Part shown: in pieces, positions 2,787 through 40,793 of the stretch
How positions within the stretch are numbered: position 1 is the stretch's first letter
Layout: every line of letters starts with the position of its first letter
Source of the DNA: Terracoccus luteus
GTDB taxonomy: Bacteria; Actinomycetota; Actinomycetes; Actinomycetales; Dermatophilaceae
DNA length: 64,000 nt
NCBI RefSeq assembly: GCF_003635045.1
Contig: NZ_RBXT01000001.1
Coordinates: 1,364,001 to 1,428,000, forward strand
Direction of reading: 5' to 3'
Notes under the pieces: generated by a model
Database searches by the model: none
What the model was told of the DNA's origin: nothing
The model's input: the letters and a program-made list of their open reading frames with translations, nothing else
Translations under genes and position numbers: made by a program

Positions 2787-2860
2787 GGTGAGGACATCCG
2801 TGACGCCGTCGGCGACCCGTCCGACCCGGTCCGGCACGGCCGTGGTGAGAGCCACGACGG

Positions 2861-2920
2861 AAGCCCCGGTGAAAGCCCCGGTGAAAGCCCCGGTGAAAGC
2901 CCCGGTGAAAGCCGTGGTGG
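2861..2920. repeat. 12-bp tandem repeat upstream of the methyltransferase
   Basis: Four exact copies of AAGCCCCGGTGA (2861-2908) are followed by a degenerate fifth copy (2909-2920). The repeat lies in the 171-bp gap between the dnaE2 stop and the methyltransferase GTG. Because the unit is a multiple of three the methyltransferase frame stays open through it, reading as a Gly-Glu-Ser-Pro repeat, back to the dnaE2 stop. Confidence 0.95.
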
Positions 2921-2957
2921 ACGGCCGGACCCCACCGCACCCTTCCTGGAGGACCCC

Positions 2958-13167: not shown

Positions 13168-14267
13168 CGTTCCTGCCCGTGGTGGCCTGGCCCCTGCTGC
13201 TCTTCCTCGTCCTCGCCGCCCTCGTGGCCGTGTGGTGGCCGTCCGACGGTCGGATGCCGGTGGGCCGGTCCGGGCGCGCCGGTGCGGTCACCGGGTCTCC
13301 CGGGTCGGTCGGGGCGGGAACCGTCCCGACCGGGAGGTCCGTGCGGTCGGCACTGTCGAGGCCGGCCGGCACCCGATGGCGCCTGACCGTTGCGGTCGCG
13401 CTGCTCGGCACGGCGGCACTGCGGCCGGGACTCCCCGGTGGTGAGGTCGACACGACCGCGGCCAACCTCAACGTCTACTTCGTCGTCGACACGACGACGA
13501 GCATCGTCGCGGAGGACTACGGCGACGAGCGGCCGCGCGTGCTCGGGGTGCGCGACGACATCGTCGACATCGCGCGGGCCCTGCCGGGGGCGCGGTACTC
13601 GGTGCTCACCTTCGACCAGTCGACGCGGGTCCGGCTGCCGCTGACGACCGACACGACGGCCCTCGGTGCGGCGGTCGAGACCCTCGCCCCCGAGCCGTCG
13701 GAGTACTCGCGCGGCACCACCGTCTCCGAGGCCAGGGAGCGGCTGGCGGCCCTGCTCGAGCAGGCGAGCACCGCCCAGCCCGAGCGCGGCCGGGTCGTCT
13801 TCTACCTCGGAGACGGCGAGCAGACGGCCGCCGACCCGCCGGCCCCGTTCGAGATCCGTGAAGGCCTCGTCAACGGGGGAGCGGTGCTCGGGTACGGCAC
13901 GAGCGAGGGCGGCCGCATGCGGGCCACCGCCGCCCGTTTCGGCTCGAGCACCGAGTACCTCAAGGACCCGACCACGGGGGAGGACGCCCGTTCCGTCGCC
14001 GACGATGGGACGCTGCGCGCCATCGCCGAGCAGCTGCGGGTGCCCTACGTCCACCGCGAGGCGGGCGACGGCATCGGCGCCGTCGTCGACGGCATCGACC
14101 TCGACCGCTACGGCACCAACGCCGAGATCGAGCAGCAGCGGGTGCGTGCCCGTGAGGAGCTGTACTGGCCGCTGCTGCTCGGCGTCGCCGGCCTCGCCGT
14201 CTGGGAGATCGGCGCCGCCGTCGCCGGCATCACCTCGAGCCGTCGCCGCCGGGAGGCCGCACCGTGA
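13164..14267 (+). CDS. Second VWA-domain membrane protein (BatB-like) with altered MIDAS
   Basis: A 367-residue protein with an N-terminal helix (TFLPVVAWPLLLFLVLAALVAVWW), a second hydrophobic segment near residue 75, a VWA domain and a C-terminal helix (LYWPLLLGVAGLAVWEIGAAVAG). The MIDAS reads DTTTS (from residue 109), with Thr where the consensus DxSxS has its first Ser; metal binding may still be possible. Translation probably starts at GTG 13164, giving a GTGA overlap with the previous stop, although GTG 13155 is in frame. Confidence 0.83.
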   Translation: MTFLPVVAWPLLLFLVLAALVAVWWPSDGRMPVGRSGRAGAVTGSPGSVGAGTVPTGRSVRSALSRPAGTRWRLTVAVALLGTAALRPGLPGGEVDTTAANLNVYFVVDTTTSIVAEDYGDERPRVLGVRDDIVDIARALPGARYSVLTFDQSTRVRLPLTTDTTALGAAVETLAPEPSEYSRGTTVSEARERLAALLEQASTAQPERGRVVFYLGDGEQTAADPPAPFEIREGLVNGGAVLGYGTSEGGRMRATAARFGSSTEYLKDPTTGEDARSVADDGTLRAIAEQLRVPYVHREAGDGIGAVVDGIDLDRYGTNAEIEQQRVRAREELYWPLLLGVAGLAVWEIGAAVAGITSSRRRREAAP

Positions 14268-15148
14268 CCCGGCCCAGCACCCTGACGACCCCGCCACCCC
14301 GCGCGAGCGAGCCCGGCGCGGCGACCCCGGCCCCGACGGCATCCGACCGCTGGTGGCGTCATCTCCTGTCCCGGATGCCGCGTCGCCGGCGCCGCGCCCT
14401 GCCGCCGCACCTCGCGGCGCGGCGGCGACGTCTGCTGCTCGCCTCGCTGCCCGTGACCGTGCTGCTCGCCCTCGTCGCACTGCGCCTCGTCACCCTCAAC
14501 CCGGTGCACGACCGCACCCTCGCCGCGTACACGGCCGGTGACGTCGACGGCACGACCACGTGGGGCGAGCGGCAGGGCTGGGTCAACGTCGTCGAGGGGT
14601 TCCGTGCCCCCTTCGCGCTCGGCGACGCGCAGGTGCTGGCGGGCCGGTTCGAGCAGGCCCGGCCGTACTTCGAGCAGGCCTTCGAGGAGGTGCCGAAGGG
14701 CGGGGTCGACGAGTGCAAGGTGCGCGTCAACCTCGGCCTGACCTACGAGGCGCTCGGTGACGCCGCGAAGGCCGCCGAGCGGGAGACCGAGTGGCGCCAG
14801 TTCTACGACAAGGGCATCACGACGATGGCCGAGCGGCCGCCCCTGTGCGACGCGCCGGAGGGCGGTGACAGCGGGCAGCGGGCCTCCGACGCGCAGCAGC
14901 GCATGGAGCAGAAGAGCCAGGACGAGCAGCAGCAGGGCCAGGAGCCGCAGCAGCCCCAGGAGGGCCAGGGCGAGCAGCCTCCGCCCCAGCCGCAGCCCGA
15001 CTCCGGGCAGCAGCCGACGCCTGAACAGCAGGAGCGACTGCGCCAGCAGCAGCAGCGCAACACGGCCGAGCGCAACCAGCAGCAGGACGACGACTCCCGC
15101 AGCCAGAACGGCGGCGGGGGAGGCCCGGCGGTGCCCAAGCCCTGGTGA
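14264..15148 (+). CDS. TPR-like membrane protein with glutamine-rich tail (BatC-like), end of the MoxR operon
   Basis: A 294-residue protein. A basic, proline-rich N terminus (1-55) precedes one membrane helix (LLLASLPVTVLLALVALRLVTL, about 57-78). A short tetratricopeptide-like helical pair follows (AQVLAGRFEQARPYFEQAFEEV ... VNLGLTYEALGDAAKAAERE). Residues ~205-294 are a Gln/Pro-rich disordered tail. It starts at GTG 14264 in a GTGA overlap with the second VWA gene. TPR proteins close many MoxR operons, probably as a scaffold outside or at the membrane. Confidence 0.8.
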   Translation: MTRPSTLTTPPPRASEPGAATPAPTASDRWWRHLLSRMPRRRRRALPPHLAARRRRLLLASLPVTVLLALVALRLVTLNPVHDRTLAAYTAGDVDGTTTWGERQGWVNVVEGFRAPFALGDAQVLAGRFEQARPYFEQAFEEVPKGGVDECKVRVNLGLTYEALGDAAKAAERETEWRQFYDKGITTMAERPPLCDAPEGGDSGQRASDAQQRMEQKSQDEQQQGQEPQQPQEGQGEQPPPQPQPDSGQQPTPEQQERLRQQQQRNTAERNQQQDDDSRSQNGGGGGPAVPKPW

Positions 15149-15208
15149 CCACAGCGCCGACAGACCGCGTCCGTCATCGCTGAGCGGATGCCGGGTGGCG
15201 GGCATCGT

Positions 15209-15273
15209 GCGCCTGGCACCTCTCGCCGCCCGGGGGTGTCGAACGCGCGTCACGATGTACGTCTGGCACCCCC
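15209..15273 (+). repeat. Intergenic hairpin element, copy 1
   Basis: GGCACCTCT (15215-15223) is followed by a long imperfect hairpin: 15232-15247 pairs with 15258-15273 using mostly Watson-Crick pairs plus several G-U pairs on the plus strand. The same arrangement (GGCACCTCT, then GGGGTGyCGrACGCGCGTCAC, then TGTrCGyCTGrCACC) recurs at 35481-35536. It lies between the end of the MoxR operon and the convergent globin gene and overlaps the 3' end of the latter. Confidence 0.8.
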
Positions 15274-15798
15274 GCTGGCTCGGAGGCGCCGAGCGCACGG
15301 CCGGGTGACGGCCGGCTCCGTCCAGGCGCCGGGCTGCAGCCCGTCCCACGACCAGTGGGGCACGGCGAGACCCGCGGGCACGTCGTCGGCGGAGACGTGG
15401 AAGCGGTACATCGACGTCGTCGTGGCCCAGGTGAAGTAGTCGTGCAGCACCGTCCGGAGGGGCTCCCCGTCCAGGCCCGCGTCGATGAGGGCCAGGTCGA
15501 AGCAGGCGACGGCCCGCTCGTTCATCTCGGGGTGCTCGCCGTTGCCGCTGTGGGCGCGCACGACCGACGACTCGTCGCCGAGCCCGCGCGAGTAGTCGTC
15601 CGGTCCGCCGAGCGCCTCGGCCCAGTAGGCGGCGAGCCGCTCGGTGTGGTCGTCGCGGTACCCGTGGCTGAAGGCGTGGGCCACGACCGCGTCGGCCAGC
15701 ACCCGTTCGTGCCACGCGTGGGCGAGACGCCGGACGCCGGGACCACCGCCCATCGCCTCGTGCACCGTCGCCCCGGACGCTCCGTCGACCGTCGCCAT
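15250..15798 (-). CDS. Group II truncated haemoglobin-like protein
   Basis: A 182-residue globin-like protein: LAHAWHERVLADAVVAHAFSHGYRDDHTERLAAYWAEALGGP corresponds to the B-E helices of truncated haemoglobins, ERAVACFDLALIDAGL to the G helix, and VPHWSWDGL to the usual C-terminal end of this actinobacterial subfamily. Such proteins bind haem and oxygen and are linked to detoxification of NO or peroxide. The last ~17 residues, rich in Arg, are encoded inside the hairpin element at 15209-15273, so the natural end may once have been shortly after WSWDGL. Confidence 0.78.
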   Translation of the reverse strand: MATVDGASGATVHEAMGGGPGVRRLAHAWHERVLADAVVAHAFSHGYRDDHTERLAAYWAEALGGPDDYSRGLGDESSVVRAHSGNGEHPEMNERAVACFDLALIDAGLDGEPLRTVLHDYFTWATTTSMYRFHVSADDVPAGLAVPHWSWDGLQPGAWTEPAVTRPCARRLRASGGARRTS

Positions 15799-34287: not shown

Positions 34288-34680
34288 GTGGCCACGGGTC
34301 ACACCGGGGTGCTGCGCCGGCTCACCGAGCGGCTCACGCGCTCGACCGACGACCTCGAGGCCGCCGAGATGCAGCGCGAGTCGGCCGAGGTGGGCGTGGT
34401 GCCGATCGACGCCGTCCGGCTGCGCGAGCGCGCCACGGTGTCGGGCGAGATCCGCTCCGTGACCCTCCGGCCGCGCGACGACGTGCCCGCGCTCGACGTC
34501 GAGGTGTGGGACGGCACCGGCACGCTGCACCTCGTGTGGCTCGGCCGACGGCGCATCGCCGGCATCGACCCCGGCGTGAAGCTGCGGGCCACCGGCCGCG
34601 TCTCGCGCCATCGCAACCTCACGACCATCTTCAACCCGGCCTACGAGATCATCGGCCGCACCGGAGCCGCACATGAGTGA
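34288..34680 (+). CDS. OB-fold nucleic-acid-binding protein
   Basis: A 130-residue protein: a short helical N terminus (LRRLTERLTRSTDDLEAAEM) then an OB-fold (RATVSGEIRSVTLRPRDDVPALDVEVWDGTGTLHLVWLGRRRIAGIDPGVKLRATGRVS). RecG-wedge-like OB proteins of this size occur beside DUF3710 and DUF3159 in Actinobacteria. GTG 34288 is the first start after the preceding stop. It may bind DNA or tRNA; no partner is evident. Confidence 0.82.
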   Translation: MATGHTGVLRRLTERLTRSTDDLEAAEMQRESAEVGVVPIDAVRLRERATVSGEIRSVTLRPRDDVPALDVEVWDGTGTLHLVWLGRRRIAGIDPGVKLRATGRVSRHRNLTTIFNPAYEIIGRTGAAHE

Positions 34681-35458
34681 CGACCCCGCCACGACGGCAT
34701 CCGGACGCGGCGACCATCCCGGCTCGTCCGGCGCGACGGGTGCGACCGGCACACCGGACGCCCCCGGTCGTCGGGACGCCCCCGAGAAGGCCGACCTCCG
34801 TCGCTACGCCACGGTCGAGGAGCTGCTGCGCGACAAGCTCTCCGAGGCCATCGGCGGCTGGCGCGGCGCGGCCGAGTCGGCGGTGCCGACGCTCGCCTTC
34901 GCGCTGACGTGGACCCGCACCCAGGACCTGCGCACCGCTCTCGTCGTCGCCGGCGCGTGCGTCGTCGTGCTGCTGCTCGTGCGGCTGGTCCAGCGCCAGG
35001 ACGCCCGGTTCATCGCCTACGCCGCGGTCGGCGTCGGCATCTCCGCCTTCTTCGCGCTGCGGTCCGGGCGTGCCGAGGACGCCTTCCTGCCCGGCATGAT
35101 CCAGAACGCGGGTCTGCTCGTGCTGCTGCTCGTGACGAACCTGACCCGCTGGCCGTTGTTCGGCTTCGTCGTCGGCGTCGCCGAGCCCGAGGTCTTCGCC
35201 GAGGACCCCACCTGGTGGCGGCGCCACCGCGGCATCGTCACCGTCGCCTCACGGCTGGCGTGGGTGCTCATCGCCCTCAACGTCGTGCGTCTCGCCGTCA
35301 TGGTGCCGCTCTACCTCGCCGAGCAGGTGGCGGCCCTCGGCGTGGCCAAGGTCGTGCTCGGCTGGCCGCTCTACCTCGTGGCCCTCACCGTCATGGGCGC
35401 GATCCTGCTGCGCGGCCGCACCCCGATCGACGCCCGCGGCCCCGCCGCCCCCGCCTGA
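34673..35458 (+). CDS. DUF3159 family membrane protein
   Basis: A 261-residue protein: a Gly/Pro/Thr-rich N terminus (1-~40), a conserved segment RRYATVEELLRDKLSEAIGG, then five to six membrane helices. The sequence NLTRWPLFGFVVG and the FAEDPTWWRRHRG loop are typical of DUF3159. Overlaps the OB-fold gene by 8 bp. Function unknown; last gene of the dut operon, followed by the hairpin array at 35481. Confidence 0.87.
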   Translation: MSDDPATTASGRGDHPGSSGATGATGTPDAPGRRDAPEKADLRRYATVEELLRDKLSEAIGGWRGAAESAVPTLAFALTWTRTQDLRTALVVAGACVVVLLLVRLVQRQDARFIAYAAVGVGISAFFALRSGRAEDAFLPGMIQNAGLLVLLLVTNLTRWPLFGFVVGVAEPEVFAEDPTWWRRHRGIVTVASRLAWVLIALNVVRLAVMVPLYLAEQVAALGVAKVVLGWPLYLVALTVMGAILLRGRTPIDARGPAAPA

Positions 35459-35480
35459 CCTCACCCGGTCCGCCGCGTTC

Positions 35481-35580
35481 GGCACCTCTGACCCGTCAGG
35501 GGTGCCGGACGCGCGTCACCGTGTGCGCCTGACACCGCTGAGCCGTCAGGGGTGCCGGACGCGCCGTTGTGTGATGCCGA
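35481..35580 (+). repeat. 50-bp tandem hairpin repeat, copy 2 of the intergenic element
   Basis: Two 50-bp units (35481-35530, 35531-35580) share an exact 21-bp core starting CGTCAGGGGTGCC (35494-35514 and 35544-35564). Two mutually exclusive hairpins are possible on the plus strand: GGCACC-TGAC/GTCA-GGTGCC (35481-35506), or GGTGCCGGACGCGCG with CGTGTGCGCCTGACACC (35501-35536), because both use the same GGTGCC. The element resembles that at 15209-15273. Confidence 0.85.
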
Positions 35581-35644
35581 GCGCGCCGTATGCGCCGCGT
35601 CTGGCATCACACAGCGGTGAACAGACGGCGTTCGGCATCACACA
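35568..35644. repeat. Inverted repeat TGTGTGATGCC / GGCATCACACA with an extra copy
   Basis: TGTGTGATGCC (35568-35578) is exactly complementary to GGCATCACACA (35603-35613), with partly complementary sequence between them. A third copy of GGCATCACACA lies at 35634-35644. The block separates the DUF3159 gene (+) from the convergent TrkA gene (-) and may act as a bidirectional terminator. Confidence 0.8.
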
Positions 35645-35683
35645 AGCGCCGACGGACGCAGGATGCCGGGTGGCTCGCTCCGG

Positions 35684-36370
35684 TCAGAGCGCGCCGAGCG
35701 ACTTCGGCCGGTCACCGGGGGCGACGATGGCCTGCAGGTGCTCTTCCTGCTCCGTCGTCGTGATGAAGAGCAGCTCGTCGCCGGCCTCCATCGCGTCGTC
35801 GGGCGTGGGGGCGAGCGGCCGCTGCTCGCGGATGATCGCGACGAGCACCGTGTCGATCGGCCAGTCGACGTCGCCGACCCGGCGGCCGGCGAAGGGGCTG
35901 ACGTCGGGCAGCGTGATCTCGACCATGGCCGCGCGGCCCTGCTGGAACTCGAAGATGCGCACGAGGTCGCCGATGCTGACGGCCTCCTCGATGAGCGCCG
36001 TCATGAGGCGCGGTGTCGAGACGGCGACGTCGACGCCCCACGACTCGTCGAACATCCACTCGTTCTTGGGGTTGTTGACGCGGGCGACCGTGCGCGGCAC
36101 CCCGAACTCGGTCTTGGCCAGCAGCGAGATGACGAGGTTGGCCTTGTCGTCACCCGTCGCGGCGACGACGACGTCGGACGTCTCGAGGTGGGCCTCCTCG
36201 AGAGCCGTGATCTCGCAGGCGTCGGCGAGCAGCCACGACGCCTCGGGCACGCGCGAGGCCTGCACGTCGTCGGCGTCCTTGTCGATGAGCAGGATCTGGT
36301 GCCCGTTGCCGAGCAGCTCGCGGGCGATGGAGCGGCCGACGCTGCCGGCTCCGGCGATGACGACGCGCAT
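35684..36370 (-). CDS. trkA: TrkA/KtrA-type potassium channel regulator (CeoC-like)
   Basis: A 228-residue cytosolic regulator with an N-terminal RCK (TrkA-N) Rossmann domain, MRVVIAGAGSVGRSIAREL with GxGxxG for NAD(H), and a C-terminal TrkA-C domain (SPFAGRRVGDVDWPIDTVLVAIIRE ... GDELLFITTTEQEEHLQAI). Such subunits gate K+ uptake channels in response to nucleotides. It follows a second copy at 36443 with 72 bp between them, like ceoB-ceoC in mycobacteria. No K+ pore gene is present. Confidence 0.9.
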   Translation of the reverse strand: MRVVIAGAGSVGRSIARELLGNGHQILLIDKDADDVQASRVPEASWLLADACEITALEEAHLETSDVVVAATGDDKANLVISLLAKTEFGVPRTVARVNNPKNEWMFDESWGVDVAVSTPRLMTALIEEAVSIGDLVRIFEFQQGRAAMVEITLPDVSPFAGRRVGDVDWPIDTVLVAIIREQRPLAPTPDDAMEAGDELLFITTTEQEEHLQAIVAPGDRPKSLGAL

Positions 36371-40640: not shown

Positions 40641-40660
40641 CCGGCATCCGACCCCTCGCC

Positions 40661-40734
40661 GGCGAACACACCGAGCAATGAGCAGGTACGCGTGTTGCAA
40701 CTCGCCGACCTGCGCATTGCTCGGTGTGTTCGCC
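40661..40734. repeat. 74-bp near-perfect palindrome between two plus-strand genes
   Basis: Arms 40661-40687 and 40708-40734 (27 bp each) are complementary at 26 positions; the inner 20 nt contain the 8-bp palindrome GTTGCAAC at the centre. Counting the whole 74 bp, 33 of 37 base pairs match. It starts 20 bp after the methyltransferase stop and ends 60 bp before the thioesterase start. Confidence 0.93.
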
Positions 40735-40793
40735 CGGGCCCGGCCGGGGGTGCCCCCAACGAGGCCGCGACGCGGCCGCGAGAGCATGGGCCC

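What the first reader, a model, noticed from the sequence alone, without database searches (positions are those of the whole stretch)
35481..35644. Tandem hairpin repeat with two mutually exclusive folds, related to an element 20 kb away
Two 50-bp units share a 21-bp exact core. In the RNA the GGTGCC of each core can pair either with GGCACC upstream (35481-35506) or with GACACC downstream (35501-35536). The element at 15209-15273 has the same layout; its hairpin keeps pairing through T-G in place of C-A and other changes, so the structure is better kept than the sequence. Downstream is a separate TGTGTGATGCC / GGCATCACACA inverted repeat with a third arm. This looks like a dispersed family of structured elements.
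Basis: seen in the sequence. Interest (0 to 1): 0.62.

Follow-up and report, generated by a model that had tools for sequence, protein, structure and literature searches.

The report
Scattered palindromes of a nuclease gene
The repeat is a scattered copy of a palindrome family that also sits beside an uncharacterised nuclease-like gene; many actinobacteria carry such a gene between palindromes of its own type, which looks like a selfish DNA element whose workings can now be tested.

Summary
Element A is two 42-bp hairpins, 50 bp apart start to start (35473-35564; 15207-15298); element B (35567-35645) lies beside the first. The genome holds 10 A and 9 B places, 12 in all. The RNA-structure reading is not supported: in A and B the arms of one copy pair no better than shuffled arms. 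In this genome B also abuts a gene between rho and rpmE for a ~320-aa protein with an AbiEi-like part (Z 11.9) and a Vsr-like, homing-endonuclease-like domain (Z 8.5); in two relatives A flanks such a gene on both sides. This is general: 53 of 66 testable named loci share a gene-specific repeat, mostly palindromic, between both flanks, against 0 of 66 windows further out and 0 of 300 shuffled pairs. The palindromes recur as solos (10 in Nocardioides ungokensis, 6 and 5 in two Kribbella). I read this as a REPtron-like selfish element with a protein unrelated to RAYT. Binding, cutting and spread are inferred. Ten paper searches found no report of the link.

The parts
35473..35514 (.). Element A, first hairpin (two 18-nt half-sites, 6-nt loop)
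   Evidence: found by model R1
35523..35564 (.). Element A, second hairpin, start 50 bp after the first, 8-bp spacer
35567..35614 (.). Element B, central hairpin; same palindrome family as beside the nuclease gene at 829 kb of this genome
   Evidence: best R2 hit, E 1.0e-18
35627..35645 (+).
15207..15248 (.). Element A copy at 15 kb, first hairpin
15257..15298 (.). Element A copy at 15 kb, second hairpin; overlaps the 3' end of the globin-like ORF 15250-15798 (-)

Best explanation
The window elements are solo copies (A alone at 15 kb, A joined to B at 35 kb) of a palindromic repeat family that belongs to a nuclease gene. The complete unit elsewhere is: palindrome; a stretch with one or two TCCACAG boxes; the gene; palindrome near the stop codon. 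The protein has an AbiEi-like part that I infer binds the palindrome as a double-stranded inverted repeat, and a Vsr-like domain that I infer cuts or nicks there. Repair of such breaks would copy palindromes, and sometimes the whole cassette, to new places, leaving one or a few cassettes and several solos per genome. Shown: the repeat families; matched, gene-specific palindromes on both sides of the gene; genome-specific solos; conserved acidic residues and predicted folds; a shared site (rho-rpmE) occupied in both orientations. Inferred: binding, cutting, spread by repair, control through the TCCACAG box.
For: A on both sides of the gene in G069 and G016. In the window's genome a 65% identical protein is encoded at 828212-829111 and the B hairpin starts 48 bp after the match. 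Named loci: flanks share a repeat in 53 of 66 (score >= 20), 0 of 66 windows 900 bp further out, 0 of 300 shuffled pairs; first set 31 of 40 above the 95th percentile of 80 shuffles. Strong hairpins within 350 bp upstream in 30 of 76 loci and downstream in 33 of 78; 1-4 of 70-76 in each of ten other bins. Solos specific to the genome's own palindrome: N. ungokensis 12 places, 10 solo, 0 in 9 other genomes; Kribbella 8 and 7 places, 6 and 5 solo, 0 in 8 others; G041 6 of 7 fetched solos. Palindrome similarity follows protein similarity (Mantel 0 of 500). Folds: AbiEi Z 11.9, I-Bth0305I Z 8.5. Opposite orientation at the same rho-rpmE site in two Humibacillus genomes.
Against: No binding, cutting or movement was observed. 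No clean empty/filled site or target duplication was found. The own-genome cassette at 829 kb shows B on one side only (upstream score 9), and no A-flanked nuclease was found in G000, G052 or G070 although they carry A. 13 of 66 loci miss the flank threshold; strict hairpins are on both sides in only 18 of 73. In G020 no strict hairpin was seen in the 5 fetched stretches, and in G113 the solo does not resemble the flank hairpins fetched. A also travels upstream of an unrelated HNH gene in G016. Z 8.5 is modest by the tool's own note, and Foldseek gave no E <= 0.001 for the nuclease domain.
Confidence: 0.58

Rival explanations
1. Operator reading: the protein is an autoregulated DNA-binding protein, as AbiEi antitoxins are; the flanking palindromes are its operators and the solos are regulatory sites elsewhere or chance-spread copies. 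The nuclease domain acts on other DNA, for example of phages or plasmids.
For: N-terminal part resembles AbiEi; in A and B each arm keeps its own degenerate half-site, as a protein-binding site would; the upstream palindrome lies before the TCCACAG region in 26 of 32 loci. That AbiEi binds inverted repeats at its promoter is recalled, not looked up.
Against: An equal palindrome lies near the stop codon, where an operator is not needed (median 12 bp, n = 33); both window copies lie between convergent gene ends, not at promoters; solos recur 5-10 times per genome.
Confidence: 0.22
2. Passive repeats: REP- or MITE-like palindromes spread by some other enzyme (a RAYT/IS200-type or another transposase, or the DUF222-HNH elements), and nuclease genes merely sit in them.
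For: Five repeats of about 1.9 kb in G016, with a DUF222-HNH gene, carry an A pair upstream; A persists in genomes without an A-flanked nuclease.
Against: Each nuclease lineage has its own palindrome, on both sides, and genomes with another nuclease lineage lack it. HNH similarity was found near none of the 80 named nuclease loci. Presence of RAYT genes was not tested.
Confidence: 0.12
3. Structured RNA: two-way terminators between convergent genes, or a switch with two exclusive folds.
For: Very stable folds; both window copies between convergent genes; covariation in G041.
Against: No covariation in A or B; G-U and A-C about equal; no Rfam match; no terminator-like site by a T-run rule; copies also lie upstream of the nuclease gene. 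The G041 covariation could also come from template switching that perfects palindromes.
Confidence: 0.06

Closest known systems
REPtron: RAYT (TnpAREP) with REP palindromes (passages of PMC3733652; abstract of PMC8266576)
   Same: A DNA-processing enzyme gene flanked by palindromes that also occur as dispersed intergenic solos, enzyme and repeat diversifying together.
   Different: RAYT is an HUH tyrosine transposase acting on single-stranded REP with a GTAG tag; here the protein has an AbiEi-like part and a Vsr-like domain, and solos number about 5-10 in the genomes examined.
EDxHD / Vsr-like homing endonucleases such as I-Bth0305I (passages of PMC3943268; free-standing homing: passages of PMC6083498)
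   Same: Catalytic domain fold (Z 8.5); possibly spread by break and repair.
   Different: AbiEi-like DNA-binding part; gene-specific palindromes on both sides and solos; homing untested.
AbiEi antitoxins (6y8q) and Rv2827c (1zel)
   Same: N-terminal 200 residues (Z 11.9 and 7.7).
   Different: Fused to a nuclease-like domain; no toxin partner looked for.
DUF222-HNH (13E12-type) repeats of actinobacteria
   Same: Repeated nuclease genes; five in G016 carry an A pair upstream.
   Different: Unrelated nuclease; A lies upstream only.

Membership tests
REPtron (RAYT/REP) | Palindromes flank the gene and are dispersed as solos | tested here: met
   53 of 66 loci; solos in N. ungokensis, two Kribbella, G041
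REPtron (RAYT/REP) | Protein is an HUH Y1 (IS200/IS605-like) transposase | tested here: not met
   AbiEi-like plus Vsr-like folds; weak AbiEi_4 and DUF559 only in Pfam
Vsr-like (EDxHD) homing endonuclease | Catalytic domain fold | tested here: met
   I-Bth0305I Z 8.5, 89 aligned, 3.1 A; modest, and no Foldseek E <= 0.001
Vsr-like (EDxHD) homing endonuclease | EDxHD active site | tested here: inconclusive
   An E..D..ExDG..H pattern in 69 of 76 stop-free loci; residues were not superposed on I-Bth0305I
Vsr-like (EDxHD) homing endonuclease | Cuts an allele lacking the gene and is copied into it | not testable with these tools
   No clean empty/filled pair found
AbiEi antitoxin (AbiE toxin-antitoxin) | AbiEi fold | tested here: met
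   Residues 8-201, Z 11.9, 183 aligned
AbiEi antitoxin (AbiE toxin-antitoxin) | Operon with AbiEii toxin | not tested
   Neighbouring genes were not screened for it
Structured RNA family | Covariation that keeps pairing | tested here: not met
   A and B no better than shuffled; met in G041 by two measures
Structured RNA family | Match to a known RNA family | tested here: not met
   No Rfam match at gathering score in the window

The most novel reading that the evidence does not exclude
A new class of selfish genetic element in Actinomycetota: an AbiEi-like/Vsr-like nuclease that recognises its own flanking palindromes, spreads cassette and palindromes by break and repair into orientation-neutral palindromic targets, changes specificity from lineage to lineage, and is tied to replication through DnaA-box-like TCCACAG sites.
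Probability: 0.38. Interest if true: 0.9.

Novelty: new variant of a known kind. Interest (0 to 1): 0.78.

Why it matters
The protein is common (a relative in 141 of 186 family genomes, and in 115 of 394 genomes drawn from the class), yet the three examples tested score below the Pfam cut-offs. Its palindromes give each copy a predicted DNA target, so the function of an uncharacterised nuclease family becomes directly testable. If the reading holds, it is a second, unrelated way for palindromic repeats to spread in bacterial genomes beside RAYT/REP, and it supplies many natural pairs of nuclease and target with differing specificities.

Tried and rejected
RNA reading: covariation in A and B not above shuffles; no Rfam match; no terminator-like or promoter-like site at 35300-35800.

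Clean insertion site: the G069 solo (C3:1086344) against G070 shows a partial A and about 140 bp missing upstream; the G070 solo (C2:377847) lines up with a shorter, diverged palindrome in G069; another solo is shared by both. So no empty/filled pair and no target duplication.

Which protein part sets specificity: partial correlations 0.19 (N-terminal) and 0.16 (C-terminal) do not decide. Within-element likeness of the four A arms: one of six comparisons p 0.015, the others 0.13 to 0.67. Gene orientation around all own-genome sites: my crude caller gave overlapping calls and I do not use it. Sequence search of solved structures with one protein: none. Not tested: RAYT genes in the genome, matched palindromes at other gene families, dispersal of the second own-genome palindrome type.

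Literature: ten searches. The listings that combined DUF559, AbiEi, Vsr or homing-endonuclease terms with palindrome or repeat terms showed no paper that links them by title and abstract; the library holds open-licence PMC papers only.

Full report
What is in the window. The window is G000:C1:1364001-1428000 of a 4.02-Mb genome in one contig; its relatives are actinobacteria. The element lies between a DUF3159 gene (34673-35458, +) and a TrkA-type gene (35684-36370, -), which converge. It has two modules. A is two 42-bp hairpins, 35473-35514 and 35523-35564. B is a hairpin at 35567-35614 plus one more 3' half-site at 35627-35645. The second A copy, 15207-15298, lies between a TPR-type gene (14264-15148, +) and the 3' end of a globin-like ORF (15250-15798, -), and its second hairpin lies inside the end of that ORF.

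Copies and geometry. A model of the single A hairpin (R1) finds 17 hairpins at 10 places with E <= 0.01; the next candidates are E 0.2 (the weak first hairpin of a known place) and E 0.55. A model of B (R2) finds 9 places. Together these are 12 places: 3 with A alone, 7 with A and B side by side, 2 with B alone. Of the 12 A elements listed (9 own, 3 of G016), 10 have two fitting hairpins with starts 50 bp apart; the one at 2051 kb has a degraded second hairpin, and at 1591 kb the degraded first hairpin also starts 50 bp before the second. The spacing recurs in other genera (for example L069-L072, L075, L077; one pair, in L060, is 51). A occurs in 10 of 186 family genomes, 6 of 53 genera, B-like hairpins in 51 of 186, 22 of 53 genera. 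A and B half-sites share the core GCGTYYGGCAYC, in the order + - + - in A and - - + + in a full B (my reading).

Structure or half-sites. The folds are very stable, but any long inverted repeat is. If pairing were selected, arms within a copy should match better than arms of different copies. They do not: A 84.3% against 84.1% shuffled, B 84.4% against 84.4%, and G-U and A-C are about equally frequent (37 and 33). One of six arm-to-arm comparisons in A had p 0.015, the others 0.13 to 0.67. The simplest reading of A and B is an array of double-stranded half-sites for a DNA-binding protein. In genome G041 the palindromes are nearly perfect and covary (8 copies; percentage paired and covariation score 0 of 500 shuffles; number of covarying pairs 75 of 500). 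There a role of the hairpin, or correction by template switching, stays possible.

The nuclease link. In two relatives (G069, G016) A pairs stand on both sides of one gene. It encodes about 320 residues with weak AbiEi_4 (E 0.002 and 0.014, those two relatives) and DUF559 (E 0.015 to 0.15, all three proteins tested) matches, below Pfam's cut-offs. In the window's own genome a 65% identical protein is encoded at 828212-829111 between rho and rpmE, and a B hairpin starts 48 bp after the match, at 829159-829206. So the window's B is a further copy of the palindrome beside that gene. That cassette has no matching repeat upstream (score 9), and no A-flanked nuclease was found in G000. A second own-genome nuclease (87522-88421) has another matched palindrome type (L113). 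In G007 the gene is in two pieces, with A hairpins on both sides.

Generality. The protein is found in 141 of 186 family genomes (E <= 1e-10) and, by profile at E <= 1e-25, in 115 of 394 genomes drawn from the class, 55 of 138 genera. One scan of named genomes gave 80 loci, among them Humibacillus, Knoellia, Janibacter, Flexivirga, Phycicoccus, Terrabacter, Kribbella, Nocardioides and Cellulomonas. Strong hairpins occur within 350 bp upstream in 30 of 76 and downstream in 33 of 78 loci, against 1-4 of 70-76 in each of ten further bins; both sides 18 of 73, either side 43 of 73. The flanks share a repeat with score >= 20 in 53 of the 66 loci with enough flank, 0 of 66 for windows 900 bp further out and 0 of 300 for flanks paired across loci. 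In an earlier set 31 of 40 exceeded the 95th percentile of 80 shuffled pairings and 19 the maximum. The repeats are mostly palindromes and differ between genes. Palindrome similarity rises with protein identity: a shared palindrome in 3 of 3 pairs above 80% N-terminal identity, 9 of 22 at 65-80%, 7 of 162 at 55-65%, 1 of 1353 below (56 loci, Mantel 0 of 500).

Solos. In Nocardioides ungokensis the palindrome of its nuclease occurs at 12 places, 2 beside the gene and 10 elsewhere, and in none of 9 other panel genomes, two other Nocardioides among them. In Kribbella antiqua it occurs at 8 places (6 solo), in K. rubisoli at 7 (5 solo, 2 beside its own nuclease), and in none of the 8 others; both at E <= 0.001. 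In G041, 6 of 7 fetched solo candidates carry the TTTGGACATGC palindrome that stands on both sides of its nuclease. Two solos of G061 resemble its flank palindromes. The check was negative in G020 (no strict hairpin in 5 fetched stretches) and in G113 (the solo differs from the flank hairpins fetched).

Cassette anatomy. The downstream hairpin starts a median of 12 bp after the stop codon (n = 33, range -110 to 286). Upstream, TCCACAG (either strand) occurs in 65 of 75 loci, against 3 of 75 in windows further out and 1 of 78 downstream; in 26 of 32 loci with an upstream hairpin it lies between hairpin and gene, 4-68 bp from the hairpin. It resembles an actinobacterial DnaA box (TTGTCCACA); that name is recalled, not tested. 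In 9 of 80 named loci rpmE lies close by, five times in the gene's direction and four times against it. I read this as repeated insertion or replacement at one site.

Protein. The model of the whole protein (24 sequences, pLDDT 82.8, pTM 0.72) aligns over residues 8-201 to the AbiEi antitoxin of Streptococcus agalactiae (Z 11.9, 183 aligned, 4.1 A; Foldseek E 1.2e-5). The C-terminal domain alone (51 sequences, pLDDT 79.2) aligns best to the homing endonuclease I-Bth0305I (Z 8.5, 89 aligned, 3.1 A) and to NGO0050 (Z 8.0), then 6.0 and lower. Foldseek itself had no E <= 0.001, and the tool warns that a best Z near 8 can be a common arrangement, so the Vsr-like label rests on the fold together with the residue pattern: E..D..ExDG..H in 69 of 76 stop-free loci, with E209, D240, E251, D253 and H257 invariant in 24 aligned proteins and D253 only nearly so in 51.

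How it may work. Shown: which sequences go together, where, and how specifically. Inferred: the AbiEi-like part binds the palindrome; the nuclease domain cuts or nicks it; repair from another copy spreads palindromes and sometimes the cassette. A palindromic target would make insertion indifferent to orientation, as seen at rho-rpmE. The operator reading is the main rival. A can also travel with another element: five repeats in G016 carry an A pair upstream of a DUF222-HNH gene (one member tested in Pfam; the others by similarity).

Known systems. It works like a REPtron (passages of PMC3733652; abstract of PMC8266576) but is not one, since the protein is not an HUH transposase. It resembles free-standing homing endonucleases (passages of PMC3943268 and PMC6083498), but the DNA-binding part, flanking palindromes and solos differ, and homing is untested. 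Ten paper searches found no report of the link.

Noticed in passing
window 1-64000, 64 places, for example 15186-15193 and 35661-35668: The octamer GGATGCCG occurs 64 times in the window against 5.9 expected from shuffles (largest of 100: 12), on both strands, about once per kb; perhaps a Chi-like or other genome-wide signal of this group.
   Followed up: partly
L062-L066 (G016): Five repeats of about 1.9 kb (two cut by contig ends) with a DUF222-HNH gene carry an A hairpin pair about 100 bp upstream of the gene.
   Followed up: partly
L113 (own genome 87522-88421): A second nuclease of the same family in the window's genome, with another type of matched flank repeat (GGTTCGAGGTAATC...); its solos were not searched.
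   Followed up: no
upstream of the nuclease genes, 65 of 75 named loci: A TCCACAG box, often two, resembling DnaA boxes, lies before the gene.
   Followed up: partly
L078, L080, L082 (rho-rpmE): The rho-rpmE interval is a recurrent site for this gene, in both orientations.
   Followed up: partly
window 40648-40747: Inverted repeat with 50-nt arms, 80% complementary, no gap between the arms, unrelated to A or B by eye.
   Followed up: no
window 2839-2922: Five tandem copies at 12-bp spacing (GCCCCGGTGAAA) inside or near coding sequence.
   Followed up: no
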